Shown piece by piece: positions 443 to 10,199 of a stretch of DNA of 10,199 nucleotides. Within the stretch, counting starts at the first letter, position 1, and each line of letters starts with the position of its first letter. Below the pieces are notes generated by a model, which worked only from the letters and a program-made list of their open reading frames with translations, searched no databases and had not been told where the DNA came from. Source of the DNA: an uncultured Oligoflexia bacterium (GTDB taxonomy: Bacteria > Bdellovibrionota > Bacteriovoracia > Bacteriovoracales > Bacteriovoracaceae). The position numbers and the translations under genes were made by a program. Location: assembly GCA_950060715.1 (NCBI GenBank), contig CATLVA010000025.1, positions 1 through 10,199 of the forward strand. The letters are read 5' to 3'.

Positions 443-1561
443 TTAGAGATATTTTTCCGGGTCAAGTGGAGTAAAAGGTAGTTCAAGGTCACGAGCTACT
501 TGCTCATAAACAAGATTTCCTTTGTAAATATTTACTCCTAAACGTAGTGGCTCGTCTTGCATAATTGACTTTTCTACTCCGTTTTTTGCCAGCATTCTAG
601 CGTATTTTAAAGTCACGTTAGTTAGAGCGTAAGTTGAAGTTCTTGGAACAGCACCTGGCATATTTGCTACACAGTAGTGAACAACTCCATCAACTACGAA
701 AGTTGGATTTTCGTGAGTCGTTGGCTTACAAGTTTCAATACATCCACCTTGGTCTACAGCAATATCTACAACAACTGAACCGTCTTCCATTTTGCTTATC
801 ATTTCGCGAGTTACAAGCTTAGGAGCTTTTGCACCAGCGACTAAAACAGCACCAATGACAAGGTCAGAGTTTAAAACTGCTTCTTCAATATTTTGTGAGT
901 TTGAAAATAGAGTTGTAATTCTGTTTTCAAATAGATCGTCCATTTCAGCTAATCTTTTGGTATTTAGATCAATACAAGTAACATCTGCACCCATACCCAT
1001 GGCCATCTTAGCAGCGTTTGTACCAGCGATACCACAACCAATGATTGTTACCTTTGCACGGTGAACACCTGGAACACCTCCAAGAAGAATCCCTTTTCCA
1101 CCTTTGTCTTTTTGTAAGCACATGGCACCAACTTGAGTGGCCATTCTACCAGCTACTTCTGACATAGGTACAAGTAATGGAAGAGATCCATCAGGGTATT
1201 GAATAGTTTCATAAGCAATACAAGTTGCACCTGACTTCATAAGACCTTCTGTAAGATCTTTATCTGCTGCAAGGTGAAGATAAGTATAAAGGATATGGTG
1301 AGGTCTTAGAAGAGCGATCTCAACTGGCTGAGGCTCTTTAACCTTTACAATCATTTCACCAGTTGCAAAACAATCTTCAAGTGTATCTAAGATTTTTGCT
1401 CCCGCTTCAATATACATTTCATCAGTAATACCGATACCAAGTCCAGCTCCCTTTTGAACAAAAAGCTCATTTCCATCTTGAACTAATTGTCTTACTCCAG
1501 AAGGTACAAGACCTACACGGTTTTCATTGTTTTTAATTTCCTTAGGCACTGCAATTTTCAT
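443..1561 (-). CDS. ald: alanine dehydrogenase
   Basis: Catalyses reversible oxidative deamination of L-alanine to pyruvate and ammonia with NAD+ in the cytoplasm, linking amino-acid catabolism to central carbon metabolism. The 372-residue product matches the usual family length of about 370. It opens with MKIAVPKEIKNNENRVG, the family N-terminus. Key residues fall at the family positions: Lys75 (in VKVKEP), His96 (in YTYLHLA), the Rossmann glycine motif GCGIAG at 175-180, Asp198 after the second Rossmann strand, Asp270 and Asn300 before MPGAVPRTST. I chose the ATG at 1561 because GAGG lies about 7 bases upstream on the minus strand; an in-frame ATG 13 codons upstream at 1600 would add a non-conserved leader. 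It is a single gene, divergent from the M16 operon. An amino-acid-eating lifestyle would make this enzyme useful, but that is inference. Confidence 0.96.
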   Translation of the reverse strand: MKIAVPKEIKNNENRVGLVPSGVRQLVQDGNELFVQKGAGLGIGITDEMYIEAGAKILDTLEDCFATGEMIVKVKEPQPVEIALLRPHHILYTYLHLAADKDLTEGLMKSGATCIAYETIQYPDGSLPLLVPMSEVAGRMATQVGAMCLQKDKGGKGILLGGVPGVHRAKVTIIGCGIAGTNAAKMAMGMGADVTCIDLNTKRLAEMDDLFENRITTLFSNSQNIEEAVLNSDLVIGAVLVAGAKAPKLVTREMISKMEDGSVVVDIAVDQGGCIETCKPTTHENPTFVVDGVVHYCVANMPGAVPRTSTYALTNVTLKYARMLAKNGVEKSIMQDEPLRLGVNIYKGNLVYEQVARDLELPFTPLDPEKYL

Positions 1562-1591
1562 ATTGACCTCATATAAATAAATGTTTTCCTC

Positions 1592-1619
1592 ACTATACAA
1601 AAAAATCCGATTTTGAACA
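1592..1619 (-). promoter_or_regulatory. possible ald promoter
   Basis: On the minus strand a TATAGT box (1597-1592) lies 30 bases upstream of the ald start. The best -35 at 16-base spacing is TGTTCA (1619-1614), a poor match with three of six consensus bases. The -10 is reasonable and the position is right; the -35 is weak, so activation or a different sigma factor is possible. Confidence 0.3.
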
Positions 1620-1685
1620 CTTTAAAATGGCCGAGATGATCAAAAATCTGAGCTTTAACACGAAGCACGATCAAACTTGCCAAGG

Positions 1686-1737
1686 TTGTGAAATTTTTGG
1701 AAAAAAGGTTATAATTGGTCATTATTCATAGAGGGAG
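1686..1737 (+). promoter_or_regulatory. promoter and ribosome binding site of the M16 peptidase operon
   Basis: TTGTGA at 1686-1691 and a perfect TATAAT at 1710-1715 are separated by 18 bases, matching a housekeeping sigma-70 type promoter. Transcription would start near 1722, giving a leader of about 20 bases. A strong GAGGGAG Shine-Dalgarno sequence at 1731-1737 lies 5 bases before the ATG at 1743. Confidence 0.7.
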
Positions 1738-1742
1738 CATAT

Positions 1743-3122
1743 ATGCGGCAGCTAGTTTTAGGTTTTGTTGTTTTTGGCCTTTTGGGGTGTAGCCACCACT
1801 CATCGACTCAGGGGAATTCCTCTCATGAGCAAGGTCAAAATAAATCGGGTATTCAGTTAGAGGTTTTCGAGAAGACTTTAGACAATGGTCTTAAAGTTTT
1901 AGTTGTGGAAAACAAGAAATTACCTGTTTTTAGTTTCTATTCGTATTACAGAGTTGGTTCTAAATTTGAAAAGCCAGGCACGACTGGATCAAGTCACCTG
2001 TTAGAACATATGATGTTTAAAGGTGGAAAGAAATATGGGGCCAATGCGTTTGATGAAATCGTCTCTGGAAATGGGGGACGAAATAACGCTTATACTACAA
2101 ATGATCTGACTGTTTATTATGAGATGCTTCCAAGTGAGCACTTCGAGATCATCGCAGATGTAGAAGCCGATAGGATGCAAAACCTTCTTTTAGAAAAAGA
2201 ATCTTTTGAAAAAGAACGTTATGTTGTTCTAGAGGAGAGAAAGCTTCGTTATGAAAACTCAGACAGAGGTAAGCTATATCTACAAATGATGAAAGAGCTA
2301 TTCGTGGGAACTCCTTATGGTTCATCGGTTATTGGAGAAGTTGAGGATTTAAAAACTGTTTCCCGTGATAAGGTTTGGGATTATTTTCAAAAATTCTATG
2401 CTCCAAATAATGCAGTTATTCTGGTCGTAGGTGATGTGGATCACGATGATATCTTCTCCATTATGGAAGATAAATTTGGAGACATTAAGCAAAATAAGAA
2501 GCTCAAAGAACAAAAGAAAACTCTTTTAGGAGAAAATGGGTTTGATTTTAAAGTAAAGCTTCCAAAGAGAATTGCGTTAAAAGGGACTTCACCTAATCCA
2601 AATTTTTATATGACTTTCAAGGGAGTTAAAATTGGAACGAGAGACGGGTTCGCTCTTGACATTCTAAGCTCTGTTCTTGGTGATGGTGAAAGTTCATACC
2701 TAAATAGAAAATTTGTTCTTGGTAATAAACCACAGCTATCAGGAGTTTACGCTGCAAACATGACTCTGCAGGAGAGTGGAGCGTTCTTTATTGGTGGAGA
2801 GCTATTAGAGAAAGTCGATCAGAAGAAATTTGAGTCAGAACTGAAAGATACCTTGAATAAGTCTTGTGATGAAGCACTTTCAATGCGAGCGATTCAGAAA
2901 GTAAAAAATCAGTACCTCTTCTCTATGGTAAATGAGTTAGATACAAATTCTGGAATTGCCGAGTTCTTAGGCAATAGGGAAGTGTATTATGGAGATTATA
3001 ATTTCTATAAAAAAGAAACTGAGACCTACGACTCTATAACAATTGAAGAATTGAAAGCAGTCTGCGAGAAGTACATCAAAGGACAGGATGCACTTACTCT
3101 TACCATTTGGAATAAAAATTAA
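1743..3122 (+). CDS. M16 family zinc metallopeptidase, lipoprotein (catalytic subunit)
   Basis: A 459-residue member of the M16 (insulinase / processing-peptidase-like) family. The N-terminus is a lipoprotein signal: a hydrophobic stretch ending in the lipobox LLGC, with Cys16 as the lipidated residue; Ser17 at +2 is compatible with outer-membrane sorting, so the protein probably works in the periplasm. The zinc motif HxxEH is intact as HLLEH at residues 85-89 (His85, Glu88 as general base, His89), and the third ligand is expected at Glu164 or Glu165 in VVLEERKLRYEN, near the usual distance. The C-terminal half has the second M16 domain (GDGESSYLNRKF region) without a clear Arg/Tyr pair. M16B enzymes degrade peptides or process proteins inside a clam-shell chamber made by two such proteins; the partner is the next gene, 11 bases downstream. 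Substrate unknown. Bacterial annotation often calls such genes YmxG or PqqL-like, but neither name is justified here. Confidence 0.93.
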   Translation: MRQLVLGFVVFGLLGCSHHSSTQGNSSHEQGQNKSGIQLEVFEKTLDNGLKVLVVENKKLPVFSFYSYYRVGSKFEKPGTTGSSHLLEHMMFKGGKKYGANAFDEIVSGNGGRNNAYTTNDLTVYYEMLPSEHFEIIADVEADRMQNLLLEKESFEKERYVVLEERKLRYENSDRGKLYLQMMKELFVGTPYGSSVIGEVEDLKTVSRDKVWDYFQKFYAPNNAVILVVGDVDHDDIFSIMEDKFGDIKQNKKLKEQKKTLLGENGFDFKVKLPKRIALKGTSPNPNFYMTFKGVKIGTRDGFALDILSSVLGDGESSYLNRKFVLGNKPQLSGVYAANMTLQESGAFFIGGELLEKVDQKKFESELKDTLNKSCDEALSMRAIQKVKNQYLFSMVNELDTNSGIAEFLGNREVYYGDYNFYKKETETYDSITIEELKAVCEKYIKGQDALTLTIWNKN

Positions 3123-4508: not shown

Positions 4509-4529
4509 GGAAAGTTCTAGTGACTTTCC
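4509..4529. terminator. short hairpin at the convergent gene ends
   Basis: GGAAAGT (4509-4515) pairs perfectly with ACTTTCC (4523-4529) around a 7-base loop. It lies between the stop of the M16 partner gene (4492) and the tail of the bactofilin gene and includes the bactofilin stop codon (4519-4517). There is no T run on either side, so an intrinsic terminator function is only possible. Confidence 0.35.
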
Positions 4530-4879
4530 TGAGGCCCTTCTTCAGTATGCCCTTCCATATTAATCTCTGCACCAGGAAAAATACTAATTGAATTGGCTTT
4601 AATTAGGCCTGAAATTTTAGCTGAGGATCTTGCTGTAAGGGTCCCACTGGCGTTAATTGATCCTGCAAATTCCCCAAAAACTTCAATGTCATGACAATAG
4701 ATATCAGCGTTAACTTCAGCTCCACGCTCTATGGTAACTTTACCTATATCCTTCATTGTGATTTTACCTTCAACCTTGCAGTTTAGGTAAGTATCCCCTT
4801 GGAAGGAAAACTCGCCGTTTAGGTTTGAGTTTTTTCCAAGTAAGGAAAAGTTTAGATCTTTGAAGCGTTTATCATCCAT
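4517..4879 (-). CDS. bactofilin
   Basis: A 120-residue protein whose core (about residues 12-112) is the right-handed beta-helix of bactofilins (PF04519, formerly DUF583). The repeating short hydrophobic/glycine pattern is plain: GEFSFQGDTYLNCKVEG, GKVTIERGAEVNADI, IEVFGEFAGSINAS, GTLTARSSAKISGLIKA, SISIFPGAEINMEG. Bactofilins polymerise without nucleotide into cytoplasmic filaments or membrane-bound sheets and position cell-wall enzymes; Helicobacter CcmA is the best-known shape-determining case. The length is typical of short bactofilins and there is no membrane segment. It is the last gene of the minus-strand operon, 3 bases after the membrane-protein stop codon and with only a weak Shine-Dalgarno (GAG), so it is probably translated by coupling. 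With a YkuD/NTF2 enzyme in the same operon, a role in cell shape is the likeliest reading. Confidence 0.93.
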   Translation of the reverse strand: MDDKRFKDLNFSLLGKNSNLNGEFSFQGDTYLNCKVEGKITMKDIGKVTIERGAEVNADIYCHDIEVFGEFAGSINASGTLTARSSAKISGLIKANSISIFPGAEINMEGHTEEGPQESH

Positions 4880-4882
4880 AAA

Positions 4883-5605
4883 TTACTCGATATTAAATGG
4901 GCCTATTTGTTGATAGAAAATAAGGTCACCAGTTTTTGAAAAAAGATAAATTTTATAACGGCTACTTAGTGAGGATATTTTTTCAAAACTAACCGGAGAA
5001 GGGCGAAGTCTTGAAAATGAATAATACTCACCTGAAGCATATTGAAGCTTTAGGTTTTTTTCGTTGAGCTCCTCTGGAGGGTAAAATTGAAGGTGAGGAC
5101 CTTGATACTGAACAACTGACATATAACCAGTCAGTTTATTTTCAGTATTATTGAGCATGTTAAAGTTAAGTTTGATTTGTTTCTTTTCAGTTGTGACCTT
5201 AATGTCAGAGAGGGTCACCATATTTTGTCCACGTAGGTCTTGTGAACCAAGAGGAATTGTAAATAAACTCAGTAGAGATGCAGTTCCCTCATTAGTTGTC
5301 CCACCTCTAGATAACTTCCTAGTTAATTCTTCATTTGTTTTTTTCAGGTCTTTTAACTGTGCATTAAAAGCAATTTCTTGCTCATCTAATTGTTGTAAAA
5401 TGGCTGGTTCTAATGCCTTGAGCTCACTTACTTTGTTCTTTAAAAAGATCGAGTAAAAGAGAGAGCCTGCTAAAAAGAAGATGATTAATGCTGGCACAAT
5501 CATCAAAATATAACGTATCAACCTTTTGTTGACTTTGATATATTTTGGCGGAGCAGGTGTATTATAGACGATTAACGTGACTTCCTTAGATGGATCCTTA
5601 ATCAT
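4883..5605 (-). CDS. single-pass inner-membrane protein with periplasmic coiled coil; likely bactofilin partner
   Basis: I recognise no named family for this 240-residue protein. Residues 1-30 are cytoplasmic and basic just before the membrane (KYIKVNKRLIRY); 31-55 form one transmembrane helix (YILMIVPALIIFFLAGSLFYSIF); 57-98 are heptad-like and likely coiled coil; about 120-240 look beta-rich and would lie in the periplasm. The positive-inside rule supports this orientation. The short N-terminal pattern KEVTLIVYNTPAPPKYIKVNKRLI resembles the cytoplasmic leader seen in some bactofilin-linked M23 peptidases, but no M23 peptidase motif is present here. Its ATG overlaps the TGA of the upstream enzyme gene (ATGA, 5605-5602) and bactofilin follows 3 bases later. 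The position between a periplasmic enzyme and a cytoplasmic scaffold suggests a linker between them, comparable in logic, not in proven homology, to Helicobacter Csd5 or Csd7. Confidence 0.8.
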   Translation of the reverse strand: MIKDPSKEVTLIVYNTPAPPKYIKVNKRLIRYILMIVPALIIFFLAGSLFYSIFLKNKVSELKALEPAILQQLDEQEIAFNAQLKDLKKTNEELTRKLSRGGTTNEGTASLLSLFTIPLGSQDLRGQNMVTLSDIKVTTEKKQIKLNFNMLNNTENKLTGYMSVVQYQGPHLQFYPPEELNEKNLKLQYASGEYYSFSRLRPSPVSFEKISSLSSRYKIYLFSKTGDLIFYQQIGPFNIE

Positions 5606-6594
5606 TCGCTACTTCTTTTTTTTTTTAGACCATCAAAAAATCTCATTGAAGGAGTGAATGCAATATTTGCTTCCTCCGTTAACTTCTGGAAACCTTCGTG
5701 GACAATTTTCCACTGATAGTTTTGATCTTTTTTAAGATATAATGTTTTTTTACCAATATCATTGATAACTTCCGAAGTGTAATCTTGCTCGATTGTAACA
5801 ACGGCATAATTTTTATAAGTTAAAGCTGAGATATTTCTAAACTTAATAATAGGACTGTCATTTCTAGCAAAAACAGCTCGCTTATATCGGCGATAAGCAT
5901 AGAAATTACCTTTGCTACTAGTAAATTCATTAGGTGAGTAAGAATTGATATAAGTTTCAAAGTCCTTATTGACCCAAGCAGTTGACCAGTTTTGTACTAC
6001 GGTCATCAAGTCTTCTTTATTCGTTTTCCAAGTGTCTTCAGATAAGAATGCTAAGTCTTGTACAATGACTACTGGTGTATTTTGAAGATCAATATACTGA
6101 GAGATATCTTTTAAGTCAGCATCAACGGCAACGACACAACCTCTTGAGTCAAGACCTTTAGAAACTCTTTTATCATCATCAGTTGAGTGAAGCCAAATTC
6201 CCCCTCCTGTTTTACCGTTCATTCTATCAATCACATTAGGGTAGTTTGTCGTAAACGCTCCAGCACCATAGATCAAACCAGTTTCACCATAACGAGAAAT
6301 TAATTCTTGCGCTGAGTGAAAGTTTTGGAAGAAGTAAACTCCCTCTGGAGTTTTATGGTCTCCCTGAACTTGCTTATTACCAATAATTTTCCCTGTCGCA
6401 ATTTGATACTTCTTAAGTAGCTTAGGAAAAGGCTCTGCGTATTGATATAGATACAAAGTATGAGTGGATTTTTCTACGACGATAACATGGTGAGTGAATC
6501 TCTGATCAAGCTGATAAATCGCCGATGGTAGAAAATTTTCAGCAAATGCTGATGTATATAAAAATAATCCGATAAATAAAGTCAATAATTTCAT
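5602..6594 (-). CDS. YkuD-fold peptidoglycan L,D-carboxypeptidase/transpeptidase with C-terminal NTF2-like domain (Csd6/Pgp2/Bd1075 type)
   Basis: A 330-residue exported protein. Residues 1-18 are a signal peptide with cleavage after SAFA. Residues about 34-168 are a YkuD catalytic domain: GDHKTPEGVYFF (78-89) is the family strand motif, His136 lies in GGIWLHST, and Cys153 in SRGCVVA (149-156) is the catalytic cysteine. Residues about 184-312 form an NTF2/SnoaL-like domain (VVQNWSTAWVNKDFETYINSYS onward). This architecture is that of Helicobacter Csd6, Campylobacter Pgp2 and Bdellovibrio Bd1075, which trim tetrapeptide stems to tripeptides and generate helical or curved cells; the NTF2 domain targets Bd1075 to one face of the cell. 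L,D-carboxypeptidase activity is therefore more likely than crosslinking. I chose ATG 6594 over the TTG at 6600 because GGAG lies 9 bases before the ATG and only 3 before the TTG. First gene of the operon; its 3' end holds an 11-base A run (see findings). Confidence 0.93.
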   Translation of the reverse strand: MKLLTLFIGLFLYTSAFAENFLPSAIYQLDQRFTHHVIVVEKSTHTLYLYQYAEPFPKLLKKYQIATGKIIGNKQVQGDHKTPEGVYFFQNFHSAQELISRYGETGLIYGAGAFTTNYPNVIDRMNGKTGGGIWLHSTDDDKRVSKGLDSRGCVVAVDADLKDISQYIDLQNTPVVIVQDLAFLSEDTWKTNKEDLMTVVQNWSTAWVNKDFETYINSYSPNEFTSSKGNFYAYRRYKRAVFARNDSPIIKFRNISALTYKNYAVVTIEQDYTSEVINDIGKKTLYLKKDQNYQWKIVHEGFQKLTEEANIAFTPSMRFFDGLKKKRSSE

Positions 6595-6695: not shown

Positions 6696-6743
6696 TAAAC
6701 ATTCGAAATATCAATCTGTTAGAATAGGAGATATAGATTGGAG
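6696..6743 (+). promoter_or_regulatory. possible promoter and ribosome binding site of the acidic coiled-coil protein gene
   Basis: TAGAAT at 6720-6725 matches five of six -10 bases. The best -35 is TAAACA at 6696-6701 with 18-base spacing, a four-of-six match. Transcription would begin near 6732. GGAG at 6740-6743 is 6 bases before GTG 6750; a second AGGAG at 6726-6730 is 7 bases before TTG 6738 but would lie upstream of that predicted transcript start. Confidence 0.4.
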
Positions 6744-6749
6744 AATAGC

Positions 6750-9308
6750 GTGAAAATTTTTGCTTTAAAATCAAATAATGAAGAGTTCAAAGGACTCATT
6801 GAAGACTTGAAAGCCTTTGCTGAAGTGGATCTTGAGCAGACTGCCGATTCCATTTTTCTTAAACTTTCAGAATGTGATGCTATTTTATTAGATTTAGATG
6901 AACAGCAAAAAATTACAGATAAGCTGACTAAGAAAGTCAGGAAAAGCCATCCAGATCTTCCCATTTTTGTTCTTGCCAATAACCTGGATGCTAAAAAGCT
7001 TGGAAAACACCAGCAATCAAAATTAGCTCCAGATTTATATTTTCGATATCCAACAGAGCCTGAAGTCCTAGAGATAATGTTGTCAGAGTATAGGGACGAT
7101 GATGATGTTCTGGTAGGAGAAGAACTGGCAGAGGAGGATTATAGCCTCTTGGAAGGACATCAAAAAACGAGTGAAGATTCAACGAATATCAGAAAAGTAA
7201 ACAATAAGATCGACAGCGCATTCGAAGACGCCTTCTCAGATGATTTTATGGGAATGGAAATGGAAGCGAATCAAGTCGAAGTAGAGGAGGGTTCCGTTGA
7301 AGCCGATTTGGAGCAAGAGCCATTTGAAGTTTCGGCTGAGGAATTTGATTTGGGAGAAGAGTTTAATCTTGGAGAGGACGATTTGAACGACAATGACTCA
7401 GAAGATGGTTTTGCCTTAGATGATGAGGTGATGAGTTTAGATGAAAGTGAGGTAATGGAGCTTGGATCCGAAGAAGAAGATAGCTTAGATGAAGAATTAT
7501 TGCCTTCCTCTGAGGATCTTGAATTTCCAGACGTTGAAGAAATAACAAAGAGTATACAACTTGAAATGGACGGAGAAAGTGAAGTTAAAGAATTTGCATT
7601 CGATAAACCTGGAGATGACAATTCGGACAGCATTGATGAGCTTGTATTGGGAGATGATGAAAGTGAAAACTCTTTCGTTGAAGAAGCAGGCCTTGAATTA
7701 GGCTCTGACGATGATTTTGAATTAAGCCTTGGGGATGATGAACTAAGTGTCGATAACTCTGCCGACGATCAGCTTGAAGTACTTGAAGAAGATGAAGGAT
7801 TATCATTTGATGATGGCTCTGAATTAGATGATCTGGAGTTTAGCTTGGGAGAAGATAGTGATGACACTTCCGCTTCAGAAGAATCAGACTCCGAATTAAA
7901 TATTGATGAAGGGACTGGAACTGCTATTTCTTTGAGTGAAGAAGAGGTCGATGAATCTTTTGATCCTTTTGCTGAAGATGACTCGCTTAGTTTGAGCGAT
8001 GAAGATGATATTGTGGCTGAAAGCCTTGAAGCCAATGAATCCGAAGAAGATTTATCAGCTGTAGAGTTCTCTACTGGTAAAGGGGGATTTGAAATTGAAG
8101 AGGGAACTTTAGATGAAGGAGAGTTAGAAAATCTCTTTACTGAAAAGGAATCCAAATCTGACCTGGTTATCGAGCATAAGCAAAAAAACACAGAGGAACC
8201 AGAAGAGTTCTCTTTGTCTGAAGACCCGCTTGAAGAAGATTCATTTATGGAGCTAGATGATCCAACAAAAGTGGGGGAAGAGCTAACAGCATCGGCATTA
8301 TTTGTCGATGAGAGCACAAAAATTTCTGCTAAAAAGTTACCTGAATCGCCGCCTGATTTTACCCAAACAATTAAGGCCAGAATTGATGAAATAGATGCCT
8401 TGGTAGATGATGAAGATGAGGAATTCGAAGAAGAAGCAACTATGGTGGCTCAAATGCCAACGCCAGCAGAGCTTCAGCAAGAACAAGATGAAGCAACTCA
8501 GGTCTTTTCTGGTGAAATTTTAAAAGCCACAGCAGATCAAGATGAAGACAAAACCAAAACTCATGTTAATGAAGACCTTATTGAAGCAATTGAGTCAGAG
8601 GATGATGCTGATCAAGAAGTTCACGTACAAAGTCGTGCTTCTCAAATGTATGTAAGTGATGACACTAAAGTTCAATATCAAGAGTATGTGAAGGATCGTG
8701 ATGAAGAACTTATGCGCTTAGGAGAGACGATAAAATCTCTTCGTGCGGATAGAGAAGGACTTCTTGATCGAATCACTGAACTGGAAGAGTCTCATGGTCG
8801 AGAGAAACGGGATTTTCTCAATATACAGGCAGAATTGGATGAGAAAAAAATTGAAGTCGAAATTCTTAAAAAGAGATATTCAAAAGAGATAGAAGACATA
8901 AAGTTTCGTTTAGACTTGGCTACGGATAAAAAAGATGTTCTATCCGCTAAAAATAAGCAATATGAACAAGAGTTTGAAAAACTAAGAAGAGAGAAAAAAG
9001 TAGATGTGAATAGAGTTCGTGCCCGCGAACGCGAATTGGAAGAGAAACTTGAGCTTCTTAAACGTGATACTGAGGTTCAAATCAGGAATAGGGATCATAA
9101 AATTCTTGAACTCAAAAGACGTATTGACACCTTAGAGTTCGACATTGAAAATGCTCATCTTCGAGAAAGAAAAAAATCTAATGACAACGATATGCTCGAA
9201 GATAGAATGGATAAGGTCATTAAAACCTTAAGAACTGTAATTGGTCAGTTAGAAGATGATTCAACTGATGAAAGACATAAATTAATAAAGAAAAACCTGG
9301 ATGTGTAA
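6750..9308 (+). CDS. large acidic protein: degenerate receiver domain, disordered acidic middle, C-terminal coiled coil
   Basis: I recognise no named family for this 852-residue cytoplasmic protein. Residues 1-114 have the alternating strand/helix pattern of a response-regulator receiver, with Asp48 (in AILLDLDE) at the phosphorylation position. The acidic pair after strand 1 is missing (FALKSNNEE), the Ser/Thr of strand 4 is Ala76 (VLANN), and the conserved Lys of strand 5 is replaced (YFRYPTEPE), so phosphotransfer is unlikely. Residues about 115-630 are extremely rich in Asp, Glu, Ser and Leu, with repeats such as FDLGEE, FNLGEDD, LVLGDDE, LSLGDDE and FSLGEDS (about 199-370). Residues about 643-845 are a long, charge-balanced coiled coil. 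The layout recalls RomR-like or FimV-like polarity proteins but shows no clear homology. I start at GTG 6750 (GGAG 6 bases upstream); TTG 6738 is the alternative and adds four residues. A GGDEF gene follows directly. Confidence 0.85.
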   Translation: MKIFALKSNNEEFKGLIEDLKAFAEVDLEQTADSIFLKLSECDAILLDLDEQQKITDKLTKKVRKSHPDLPIFVLANNLDAKKLGKHQQSKLAPDLYFRYPTEPEVLEIMLSEYRDDDDVLVGEELAEEDYSLLEGHQKTSEDSTNIRKVNNKIDSAFEDAFSDDFMGMEMEANQVEVEEGSVEADLEQEPFEVSAEEFDLGEEFNLGEDDLNDNDSEDGFALDDEVMSLDESEVMELGSEEEDSLDEELLPSSEDLEFPDVEEITKSIQLEMDGESEVKEFAFDKPGDDNSDSIDELVLGDDESENSFVEEAGLELGSDDDFELSLGDDELSVDNSADDQLEVLEEDEGLSFDDGSELDDLEFSLGEDSDDTSASEESDSELNIDEGTGTAISLSEEEVDESFDPFAEDDSLSLSDEDDIVAESLEANESEEDLSAVEFSTGKGGFEIEEGTLDEGELENLFTEKESKSDLVIEHKQKNTEEPEEFSLSEDPLEEDSFMELDDPTKVGEELTASALFVDESTKISAKKLPESPPDFTQTIKARIDEIDALVDDEDEEFEEEATMVAQMPTPAELQQEQDEATQVFSGEILKATADQDEDKTKTHVNEDLIEAIESEDDADQEVHVQSRASQMYVSDDTKVQYQEYVKDRDEELMRLGETIKSLRADREGLLDRITELEESHGREKRDFLNIQAELDEKKIEVEILKKRYSKEIEDIKFRLDLATDKKDVLSAKNKQYEQEFEKLRREKKVDVNRVRARERELEEKLELLKRDTEVQIRNRDHKILELKRRIDTLEFDIENAHLRERKKSNDNDMLEDRMDKVIKTLRTVIGQLEDDSTDERHKLIKKNLDV

Positions 9309-10199
9309 TTGAAAAAGATTTTAGTTCATCAATTAAGAGACGAGGAAATTAAATTGATCGAGAAGTTGGCTAAGGAAGCTTACCAGACTTCAGTCGTACA
9401 AGTTGACGATTTCTCGAAACTACTTGATAGCGATGTTGGTCAATACAGCAGTTTTTTTATTAAAGTCGATGAGGATACGGAAACTGATAATCTAGAGGCA
9501 GTGCTTAAATATTTTGCCCGGATTCCTTGTCATATCGTTCTTGAAGATAACAACTATGATGCCTTAAAGCTTGGTTTTCGGTATCGAGTCAATGAGATCT
9601 TTGAAAATAAAATCCAAATATCTACTTTAGAGCGTGCGATGCTCAGGGTGAGTGTTATTGCGGATGAGGATGGTAAGCTTCTTCCTGTTGAGCAGATAGT
9701 TCGCCTTTTTTCTAATTCTATGAAAATTAAAACGAATCTCGATTTGTATAATCGCCTAGCGAATTATTTTAAAAGCTTCCAGTTTGACCTACAGTTTTCT
9801 TTATTAGAGAGACTAAAAGACGGATCACAAATGTGTTACGGTGAAGCTTTTGATGACAAAATATTCAAAGCAGCGCTAAGTACTAGGCTACAACGTCGCT
9901 ATGTTGGTCAAGTTGTCGAAATCGAACCTGGAATATTTGCTACACCTGTTTTTGATGGAAAAGATCAAAAAGTATGGGTTCTTTTAAAAATTGAAAGCGA
10001 AAAACAAGATTTTGTCTTTAACTCACTGTTTTTTAAATTTTTAGAAGGTGTGATGCACTTTAGGGCCACTGAAGAGAAACAACAAACTCTAGAAATGTTG
10101 GCGAAAACAGATGAAGTCACAGGTCTTTATAATCAGAGAAAACTGTCTGAAGACCTGGAAGCTGCGGTTAAGCTTCACGAGCAGGAACATGATAATTTT
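9309..10199 (+). CDS. diguanylate cyclase (GGDEF) with receiver-like N-terminus, truncated by the window end
   Basis: The 297 visible codons have no stop and continue past the window. The C-terminal residues 267-279, TDEVTGLYNQRKL, are the signature that opens GGDEF domains (DxLTGLxNRR-like); the GGDEF active site itself is outside the window, so whether the enzyme is active cannot be judged. If it is, it makes cyclic di-GMP from two GTP. Residues 1-112 resemble a receiver without its chemistry: KKILVHQL as strand 1, IPCHIVLED as strand 4, then ALKLGFRYRVNEIFE where a normal receiver has the GADDYLxKP-type strand. Residues about 130-250 have a GAF-like strand/helix pattern and lead through a helix into the cyclase. 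The TTG start at 9309 immediately follows the TAA of the acidic protein gene (9306-9308); only a weak GGA (9299-9301) precedes it, so translation probably depends on coupling. The first in-frame ATG is far downstream, inside the receiver-like domain. Confidence 0.85.
   Translation, partial: MKKILVHQLRDEEIKLIEKLAKEAYQTSVVQVDDFSKLLDSDVGQYSSFFIKVDEDTETDNLEAVLKYFARIPCHIVLEDNNYDALKLGFRYRVNEIFENKIQISTLERAMLRVSVIADEDGKLLPVEQIVRLFSNSMKIKTNLDLYNRLANYFKSFQFDLQFSLLERLKDGSQMCYGEAFDDKIFKAALSTRLQRRYVGQVVEIEPGIFATPVFDGKDQKVWVLLKIESEKQDFVFNSLFFKFLEGVMHFRATEEKQQTLEMLAKTDEVTGLYNQRKLSEDLEAAVKLHEQEHDNF

What the first reader, a model, noticed from the sequence alone, without database searches (positions are those of the whole stretch)
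4517..6594. Compact cell-shape module: YkuD/NTF2 enzyme, membrane coiled-coil linker and bactofilin in one operon
In Helicobacter the shape enzyme Csd6 and the bactofilin CcmA are parts of one shape pathway but encoded apart; in Bdellovibrio the Csd6-like Bd1075 creates curvature. Here a Csd6/Bd1075-type enzyme and a bactofilin are joined through an unrecognised single-pass protein with overlapping or nearly touching reading frames. The middle protein has a basic cytoplasmic tail that could bind bactofilin and a periplasmic coiled coil plus beta domain that could hold the enzyme's NTF2 domain. Together they form a plausible complete inside-to-outside machine for placing peptidoglycan trimming. 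I know of no description of this exact three-gene unit.
Basis: partly seen in the sequence, partly recalled or inferred. Interest (0 to 1): 0.75.

Follow-up and report, generated by a model that had tools for sequence, protein, structure and literature searches.

The report
Bactofilin, membrane adaptor, wall-trimming enzyme operon
Relatives of a predatory bacterium keep three touching genes - a cell-wall trimming enzyme, a membrane-spanning adaptor and a cytoskeletal protein - that probably work together on cell shape, the adaptor looking like a known cytoskeleton anchor with a different outer domain.

Summary
On the minus strand a Bd1075/Csd6-type YkuD-NTF2 enzyme (5602-6594), a 240-aa single-pass protein (4883-5605) and a bactofilin (4517-4879) overlap by 4 nt or lie 3 nt apart. 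In 116 loci from 115 of 129 genomes of one order, the enzyme is directly upstream of the linker in 113 and bactofilin directly downstream in 113; the six misses are contig ends. Outside that order the core is linker plus bactofilin (33 of 34 loci); the enzyme is upstream in one. The linker matches no Pfam family. AlphaFold2 (pLDDT 93) gives a cytoplasmic beta-hairpin, a long membrane/coil helix and an Ig-like beta-sandwich. Its hairpin-TM-coil half is related (hhalign 96%) to the N-terminus of M23 peptidases with LmdC architecture; in R. rubrum LmdC that hairpin is needed for bactofilin-dependent localisation. Best reading: an LmdC-like bactofilin anchor with an Ig-like domain in place of M23, working with a separately secreted LD-carboxypeptidase. 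Bactofilin binding is inferred from homology; linker-enzyme contact is only suggested by rate covariation. New variant of a known kind.

The parts
5602..6594 (-). Csd6/Bd1075-type enzyme: signal sequence, YkuD domain (about 6064-6489), NTF2-like Cds6_C domain (about 5695-6009). TTG 6600 is an alternative start.
   Evidence: Pfam PF03734 1.6e-16, PF24125 1.1e-19; 7o21 1.6e-42; His and Cys of the active site in 112 of 112 in-order enzymes, window included
6187..6189 (-). catalytic His codon (His138 of the 332-aa ORF; Bd1075 H141)
   Evidence: alignment; 112 of 112
6136..6138 (-). catalytic Cys codon (Cys155; Bd1075 C156)
   Evidence: alignment; 112 of 112
5689..5691 (-). Phe304 codon, position of Bd1075 W303 in the NTF2 pocket
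   Evidence: W in 91 and F in 21 of 112; role of W303 from PMC8938487 (passages)
4883..5605 (-). linker/adaptor, 240 aa, single-pass; no Pfam family
5528..5584 (-). linker residues 8-26: cytoplasmic beta-hairpin, proposed bactofilin-binding site
   Evidence: AlphaFold2 model; hhalign to N-termini of M23 proteins
5306..5527 (-). linker residues 27-100: one continuous helix, membrane segment (about 33-54) then periplasmic coil
   Evidence: AlphaFold2 model; hydrophobic run read by eye in the translation
4886..5263 (-). linker residues 115-240: periplasmic beta-sandwich, Ig-like (label mine)
4517..4879 (-). bactofilin, 120 aa; domain about 4559-4846
   Evidence: PF04519 72.3 bits
6595..6737 (.). 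divergent intergenic region with a promoter-like site on the minus strand (6658-6630); the scan of the region found 7 such sites, shuffles 7.5 on average
   Evidence: gene positions

Best explanation
The unit is a bactofilin-based cell-wall editing module. The bactofilin polymerises in the cytoplasm. It is held at the inner membrane by the linker's N-terminal beta-hairpin, the same kind of anchor that M23 peptidases of LmdC architecture carry. The linker crosses the membrane, extends into the periplasm as a coil and ends in an Ig-like domain where LmdC has its M23 peptidase. The separately secreted Bd1075-type LD-carboxypeptidase (tetrapeptide to tripeptide trimming) is placed by this scaffold, directly through the Ig-like domain or indirectly through the wall, so that trimming is confined to one zone and shapes the cell. 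Shown here by computation: gene order and its conservation, domain identities, active-site conservation, hairpin-TM-coil homology to M23 proteins, predicted beta-sandwich, joint absence in four genomes. Inferred: hairpin binds bactofilin; enzyme is an LD-carboxypeptidase; linker localises the enzyme; role in shape.
For: Synteny: 113 of 116 loci for each neighbour, the six misses at contig ends; trio intact in 8 loci where the M16/ald flank is moved or not found within about 6 kb (L056, L064, L069, L079, L082, L103, L117, L120). In four genomes (G066-G069) the trio is not beside the kept M16 genes and no enzyme, linker or bactofilin matched at E 1e-3 genome-wide. Linker and a second bactofilin go together: 2 or more bactofilin matches in 156 of 171 linker-positive and 24 of 197 linker-negative genomes (hand tally). 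In 6 of 10 bactofilin loci examined from 'negative' genomes (L310-L313, L321, L326) a divergent linker-like gene lies directly upstream (hhalign 90.7% for three of them). Hairpin: AlphaFold2 pLDDT 93; hhalign linker vs M23 N-terminus 96.4% (hairpin+TM+coil), 78.2% hairpin only, score 19.2 vs 12.3 best of 40 column-shuffled controls. PMC10945521 section 13: exchanges in the LmdC hairpin abolish its enrichment at the inner curve. Four bactofilin-less genomes keep the M23 domain, but an HMM of the M23 N-terminus scores E 0.5 or worse in 4 of 4, against 0.008 or better in 21 of 21 others. Rate covariation: linker-enzyme partial r 0.57, enzyme-bactofilin 0.51, linker-bactofilin 0.37, versus 0.22-0.32 for the three with the neighbouring rr gene (68 loci).
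Against: In 33 of 34 outside-order loci the enzyme is not in the operon, though 48 of 56 such genomes have a Cds6_C match (hand tally): the linker's first partner was not necessarily this enzyme. The NTF2 domain of Pgp2 is reported to bind peptidoglycan (PMC8938487 discussion). In the rate test every pair, rr included, beat all 500 permutations; linker-M16b (0.74, ald controlled) is nearly as high as linker-enzyme (0.78), and linker-bactofilin is only slightly above the rr baseline. An HMM of the linker N-terminus does not separate the bactofilin-less M23 proteins cleanly: 16 of 21 others score better than all four, 5 of 21 do not. Hairpin match to a Leptospira M23 encoded next to a bactofilin was not significant (4%); the M23 genes that do match are not next to a bactofilin. 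Three of the 10 loci (L307, L308, L314) have no linker by the bactofilin and L309 only a 79-aa match; G341 has a linker without bactofilin beside it.
Confidence: 0.55

Rival explanations
1. Linker and bactofilin form the machine; the enzyme is only co-transcribed with it and reaches its site alone, through its NTF2 domain binding the wall.
For: Linker-bactofilin pairs without enzyme in 32 of 34 outside-order loci; enzyme without a linker match in many genomes of G130-G272; the NTF2 domain is reported to target Bd1075 (PMC8938487, passages).
Against: Linker-enzyme has the highest rate covariation among the trio; the enzyme is immediately upstream of the linker in 113 of 116 in-order loci.
Confidence: 0.27
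2. The linker works like H. pylori Csd5: its periplasmic domain binds peptidoglycan, it recruits bactofilin to the envelope and brings in synthesis enzymes; the carboxypeptidase acts in parallel.
For: Csd5 is described as a transmembrane protein that binds PG by its SH3 domain and recruits CcmA (PMC9507126, abstract and passages). Only 11 of 114 trio bactofilins have an MFSK-like start by a crude rule, so they may need an anchor.
Against: Predicted periplasmic fold is a beta-sandwich of Ig-like type; no SH3 family among the Pfam rows shown (25 of 101 families shown). None of the eight window proteins scanned is MurF.
Confidence: 0.12
3. The grouping is a fossil of an old gene order with no joint function.
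For: The wider neighbourhood (ald, two M16 peptidases, rr, GGDEF-like) is also conserved in most loci.
Against: The trio stays together in 8 loci where the flank changed, and is absent as a whole in four genomes that keep the M16 genes.
Confidence: 0.04

Closest known systems
LmdC-BacA (M23 peptidase-bactofilin) module, Hyphomonas / Rhodospirillum rubrum (PMC10945521)
   Same: Bitopic protein encoded next to the bactofilin gene and overlapping it in Hyphomonas; N-terminal cytoplasmic hairpin, TM, coil.
   Different: Here the periplasmic end is an Ig-like domain, not an M23 peptidase; a hydrolase-type enzyme is encoded separately in the same operon.
Bd1075 of Bdellovibrio bacteriovorus; Csd6 of H. 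pylori; Pgp2 of C. jejuni
   Same: YkuD + NTF2 architecture, catalytic His and Cys, Val two after the Cys as in Bd1075, aromatic (W or F) at the Bd1075 W303 position.
   Different: Bd1075 is reported monocistronic; here the gene sits in an operon with a bactofilin and its presumed membrane partner.
Csd5-CcmA (H. pylori, PMC9507126)
   Same: Transmembrane protein that links a cytoplasmic bactofilin to the periplasm.
   Different: Csd5 has an SH3 domain and works with MurF; whether its gene lies near ccmA was not checked here.
PbpC-BacA (Caulobacter, PMC12448750)
   Same: Cytoplasmic N-terminus of a bitopic wall enzyme binds bactofilin and can anchor it to the membrane when overproduced.
   Different: PbpC is a wall synthase and binds through its first 13 residues.

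Membership tests
Bactofilin | PF04519 domain above cut-off | tested here: met
   72.3 bits, cut-off 27.9
Bactofilin | polymerises without nucleotide | not testable with these tools
   -
Csd6/Pgp2/Bd1075 LD-carboxypeptidases | YkuD domain followed by Csd6-type NTF2 domain | tested here: met
   phmmer to 7o21, 6xj6, 6xj7, 4xzz
Csd6/Pgp2/Bd1075 LD-carboxypeptidases | catalytic His and Cys | tested here: met
   112 of 112 in-order enzymes incl. window
Csd6/Pgp2/Bd1075 LD-carboxypeptidases | Bd1075-type NTF2 end with W303 | tested here: inconclusive
   position is W in 91, F in 21 of 112; window has F
Csd6/Pgp2/Bd1075 LD-carboxypeptidases | tetrapeptide-to-tripeptide activity | not testable with these tools
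   -
LmdC-type bactofilin client | gene directly upstream of bactofilin, touching or overlapping | tested here: met
   3-nt gap in the window; bactofilin directly downstream in 113 of 116 loci
LmdC-type bactofilin client | N-terminal cytoplasmic beta-hairpin, TM, coil | tested here: met
   AlphaFold2; hhalign to N-termini of M23 proteins of the same architecture. LmdC itself was not available for comparison
LmdC-type bactofilin client | C-terminal M23 peptidase domain | tested here: not met
   no PF01551 in the window linker at E 1; beta-sandwich model. So it is not an LmdC, though it may anchor bactofilin like one
LmdC-type bactofilin client | binds bactofilin | not testable with these tools
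   -
Csd5 | periplasmic SH3 domain | tested here: inconclusive
   no SH3 family among the Pfam rows shown; fold rows are other beta-sandwiches

The most novel reading that the evidence does not exclude
Bactofilin partners are a modular family: one conserved hairpin-TM-coil anchor carries interchangeable periplasmic ends - an M23 peptidase in LmdC, or, in a family that matches no Pfam model and is spread through the phylum of Halobacteriovoraceae, a non-enzymatic Ig-like adaptor. In one order the adaptor has joined a Bd1075-type carboxypeptidase in its operon, which gives a physical route from a cytoplasmic filament to a one-sided wall-trimming enzyme.
Probability: 0.45. Interest if true: 0.75.

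Novelty: new variant of a known kind. Interest (0 to 1): 0.62.

Why it matters
PMC8938487 says that, to its authors' knowledge, no mechanistic basis is known for targeting a protein to one side wall, and Bd1075 is the case in point (passage). Here a close relative of Bd1075 is encoded with a bactofilin and a membrane adaptor, so the question becomes directly testable in culturable relatives. The hairpin result also gives a sequence handle for finding other bactofilin partners.

Tried and rejected
Leptospira M23 (next to a bactofilin on plasmid lbp2) as an LmdC stand-in: profile match of its N-terminus to the linker not significant (4%), so not used as support. R. rubrum and Hyphomonas LmdC sequences were not obtained; the link to them is by published architecture only. 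Pfam and NCBIfam gave no family for the linker; the profile search found 39 proteins, none with a precomputed Pfam domain, only 7994 candidates having been scored. DUF6776, recalled as a bactofilin neighbour in gammaproteobacteria, was not tested beyond the Pfam scans. The Halomonas and Proteus regions show a bactofilin-like protein with a membrane segment and no linker-like ORF among the ORFs listed. AlphaFold2 of a divergent linker with three sequences gave low confidence (60.4) but the same order of elements. Complex prediction and residue coupling were not attempted: the tool takes single natural chains, and about 110 sequences are too few. The 10 linker-less order genomes other than G066-G069 were not counted as losses: six have no close M16b match, two (G093, G106) have M16b at a contig edge, and G126 and G049 show about 1.1 and 0.4 kb beyond M16b without a bactofilin match and stay unresolved. 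G004 gave no M23 protein comparable with the others and is not in the 25 compared. In the second search for linkers, 12 of the 28 genomes had been picked because of earlier weak matches; of the 10 others without linker or extra bactofilin, 7 gave the M23 protein.

Literature: searches (open-licence PMC only) showed no description of this three-gene unit in the titles and abstract starts listed. Lists were capped (20 of 24; 15 of 82; 15 of 42); none of the 15 listed mentions bactofilin. I read passages of PMC8938487, PMC12448750, PMC9507126 and PMC10151779, and passages plus sections 9 and 13 of PMC10945521; no paper was read whole.
Full report
What is there. On the minus strand three genes read enzyme (5602-6594), linker (4883-5605), bactofilin (4517-4879), with a 4-nt overlap and a 3-nt gap. 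They face two M16 peptidase genes and alanine dehydrogenase on one side, and on the other a divergent gene for a receiver-like plus coiled-coil protein ('rr' below; described by eye, one weak Pfam match) and the start of a gene with a weak GGDEF match. No Rfam match lies in the window.

The enzyme. Pfam gives YkuD and Cds6_C; phmmer finds four distinct solved sequences, best 7o21 at 1.6e-42, then two Pgp2 entries and 4xzz, which is Csd6. Among 112 in-order enzymes, window included, the catalytic His and Cys are invariant, the residue two after the Cys is always Val (as Bd1075 V158), and the Bd1075 W303 position is W in 91 and F in 21, the window having F. PMC8938487 (passages) reports that W303 and the NTF2 domain are needed for convex-face targeting and describes W303 as conserved among Bdellovibrio homologues but absent from other such enzymes; here W or F stands at that place throughout another order. 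An N-terminal hydrophobic segment is seen in 109 of 112.

Conserved neighbourhood. The one scan of genome contigs with the linker alignment gave five loci, four titled Halobacteriovoraceae and one Oligoflexia MAG; all five keep the trio and most of the wider block. NCBI places Halobacteriovoraceae in Bacteriovoracales, Bdellovibrionota. The linker occurs in 115 of 129 genomes of the order, nearly always once. I fetched 116 loci from these 115 genomes and scored neighbours with HMMs seeded on the window: enzyme directly upstream on the same strand in 113 of 116, bactofilin directly downstream in 113 of 116. The six misses (L114, L126, L128, L129, L145, L147) sit at contig ends. In eight loci the M16/ald flank is moved or not found within about 6 kb while the trio is intact.

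Presence tallies (made by hand from the printed tables). In the order: linker 115, enzyme 115, both 114 of 129; two or more bactofilin matches in 103 of 115 linker-positive and 0 of 14 linker-negative genomes. Outside it, 56 of 239 genomes have a linker at E 3.1e-6 or better; 53 of these have two or more bactofilin matches and 48 have a Cds6_C match. Twelve more genomes (one of them in the order) had weak linker matches, E 3.7e-5 to 9.5e-4, and are counted as negative. Over the 368 genomes, 156 of 171 linker-positive against 24 of 197 linker-negative have two or more bactofilin matches; some of the 24 are fragments, split matches or below cut-off.

The core is two genes. I fetched 34 of the 56 outside-order loci (those with printed positions). 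Bactofilin follows the linker in 33 of 34, the exception being L197 (G341). An enzyme match is upstream in only one, L192, where it is cut by the contig end. I then looked at ten bactofilin loci from genomes counted as linker-negative. In six (L310-L313, L321, L326) a gene of linker type lies directly upstream, L312 being cut by the contig end; L309 has a 79-aa match; L307, L308 and L314 have none. For L310, L311 and L313, hhalign to the linker profile gives 90.7%, E 1.3e-6, over 210 columns. A wider profile that includes these three then finds G273, G277 and G284 at 1e-35 to 1e-19; G284 is the independent one.

Joint absence. Of the 14 order genomes without linker, 13 also lack the enzyme. 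For most this may be assembly gaps (see Tried and rejected). In G066, G067, G068 and G069 both M16 genes are present; in two (L279, L282) an rr-like gene follows M16b after about 90-120 nt, in two (L280, L283) a small gene lies between M16b and a gene with a similar start (by eye). The trio is not there, and no bactofilin, linker or enzyme matched in those genomes. They may be one clade, so this is perhaps one event.

The anchor is shared with M23 peptidases. Of 28 genomes searched with the wider profile, 19 matched: four have divergent linkers, three (G219, G231, G233) gave unrelated or unread hits, and 12 matched only over about profile 5-127, mostly 8-97 (hairpin, TM, coil), at E 1e-6 to 9e-4, in open frames of 275 to 352 aa. 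I read 11 of these in full and one contig-cut; the three sent to Pfam are M23 peptidases at 1e-32 to 1e-34 and the rest look alike. Several are near-identical, so the M23 profile is shallow (Neff about 2.2-2.5). Profile comparison: hairpin+TM+coil 96.4%, score 47.4 (best of 40 column-shuffled controls 16.2); hairpin+TM 94.2%, 32.0 (13.9); hairpin alone 78.2%, 19.2 (12.3). PMC10945521 (passages and sections 9 and 13) reports that LmdC of R. rubrum has a conserved N-terminal beta-hairpin, that exchanges in it abolish LmdC enrichment at the inner curve, and that bactofilin genes lie next to M23 genes in 226 species. The M23 genes matched here are not next to a bactofilin, and their likeness to LmdC rests on architecture.

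A natural control. M23 proteins with this N-terminus also occur in the window's order beside the Ig-type linker. Of 26 genomes searched, 25 gave a comparable protein (not G004). With an HMM of the M23 N-terminus, 21 of 21 from bactofilin-bearing genomes score E 0.008 or better and 4 of 4 from bactofilin-less genomes 0.5 or worse, though the M23 domains of the four score 126-150 bits, close to the 131-158 bits of 14 other order genomes. With an HMM of the linker N-terminus the split is not clean: 16 of 21 score better than all four, 5 of 21 do not. The result fits a hairpin kept for bactofilin; the four may be one clade.

Does the linker touch the enzyme? Patristic distances for seven genes at 68 loci: linker-enzyme rho 0.88, against 0.89 for the two M16 genes. 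After regressing on ald, m16a and m16b: linker-enzyme 0.57, enzyme-bactofilin 0.51, linker-bactofilin 0.37, and 0.32, 0.24, 0.22 for linker, enzyme and bactofilin with rr. All six pairs, rr included, beat 500 of 500 permutations, so only the relative sizes say anything. rr was cut to 140 aa, and linker-M16b (0.74 with ald controlled) is close to linker-enzyme (0.78). This is suggestive only.

How it probably works. Bactofilin filaments form in the cytoplasm. By a crude rule only 11 of 114 trio bactofilins carry an MFSK-like membrane-targeting start (motif from PMC12448750, passages), so the linker may be their membrane anchor, as Csd5 is for CcmA (PMC9507126) and PbpC can be for BacA. The linker's Ig-like domain stands in the periplasm and either holds the carboxypeptidase or marks the wall for it.

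Known or new. Bactofilin plus bitopic partner plus wall hydrolase is a known kind. New here: an adaptor family without a Pfam model, an Ig-like end in place of M23, the enzyme supplied separately from the same operon, and the order-wide conservation. I found no description of it in the searches named under Tried and rejected. The interest is moderate to high because it gives a testable scaffold for a Bd1075-type enzyme; it is limited because many genomes with that enzyme, presumably including Bdellovibrio relatives (unnamed here), show no linker and only one bactofilin. Rechecking mended some counts (notably 6 of 10, not all, bactofilin loci in 'negative' genomes have a linker-like neighbour); it did not require a change of odds.

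Noticed in passing
window 6738-9308 (+) and 9309-10199 (+): A receiver-like N-terminus, very acidic middle and coiled-coil C-terminus (856 aa), followed by a protein with a weak GGDEF match, sit divergently next to the trio. The rr gene is found upstream of the linker in 29 of 34 outside-order loci, mostly without the enzyme, and may be tied to the bactofilin pair.
   Followed up: partly
L217-L246 (listing truncated): The other, more widespread bactofilin lies between ParB and ATP synthase subunit genes in most of the loci that the listing shows, pointing to a separate bactofilin tied to chromosome segregation.
   Followed up: partly
L309 (G297), about 1453-2708, minus strand: In a 1.3-Mb genome the order enzyme-linker-bactofilin recurs, but the enzyme match lies in two frames and the linker match is a 79-aa frame only.
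   Followed up: no
L001 and L004, both in G001: One MAG holds two copies of the whole neighbourhood, with linkers 61% and 44% identical to the window's; a mixed MAG or a true duplication.
   Followed up: no
L318 3477-5057 (Leptospira borgpetersenii plasmid lbp2): PBP1A, bactofilin and an M23 peptidase (annotated) in a row; the M23 protein's N-terminus looks hairpin-like before a hydrophobic segment, but the profile match to the linker was not significant.
   Followed up: partly
L310-L313 and L321: The divergent linker-bactofilin pair of this lineage is flanked in several of these loci by a MurJ-like membrane protein gene and an FHA-like gene (by eye, no search).
   Followed up: no
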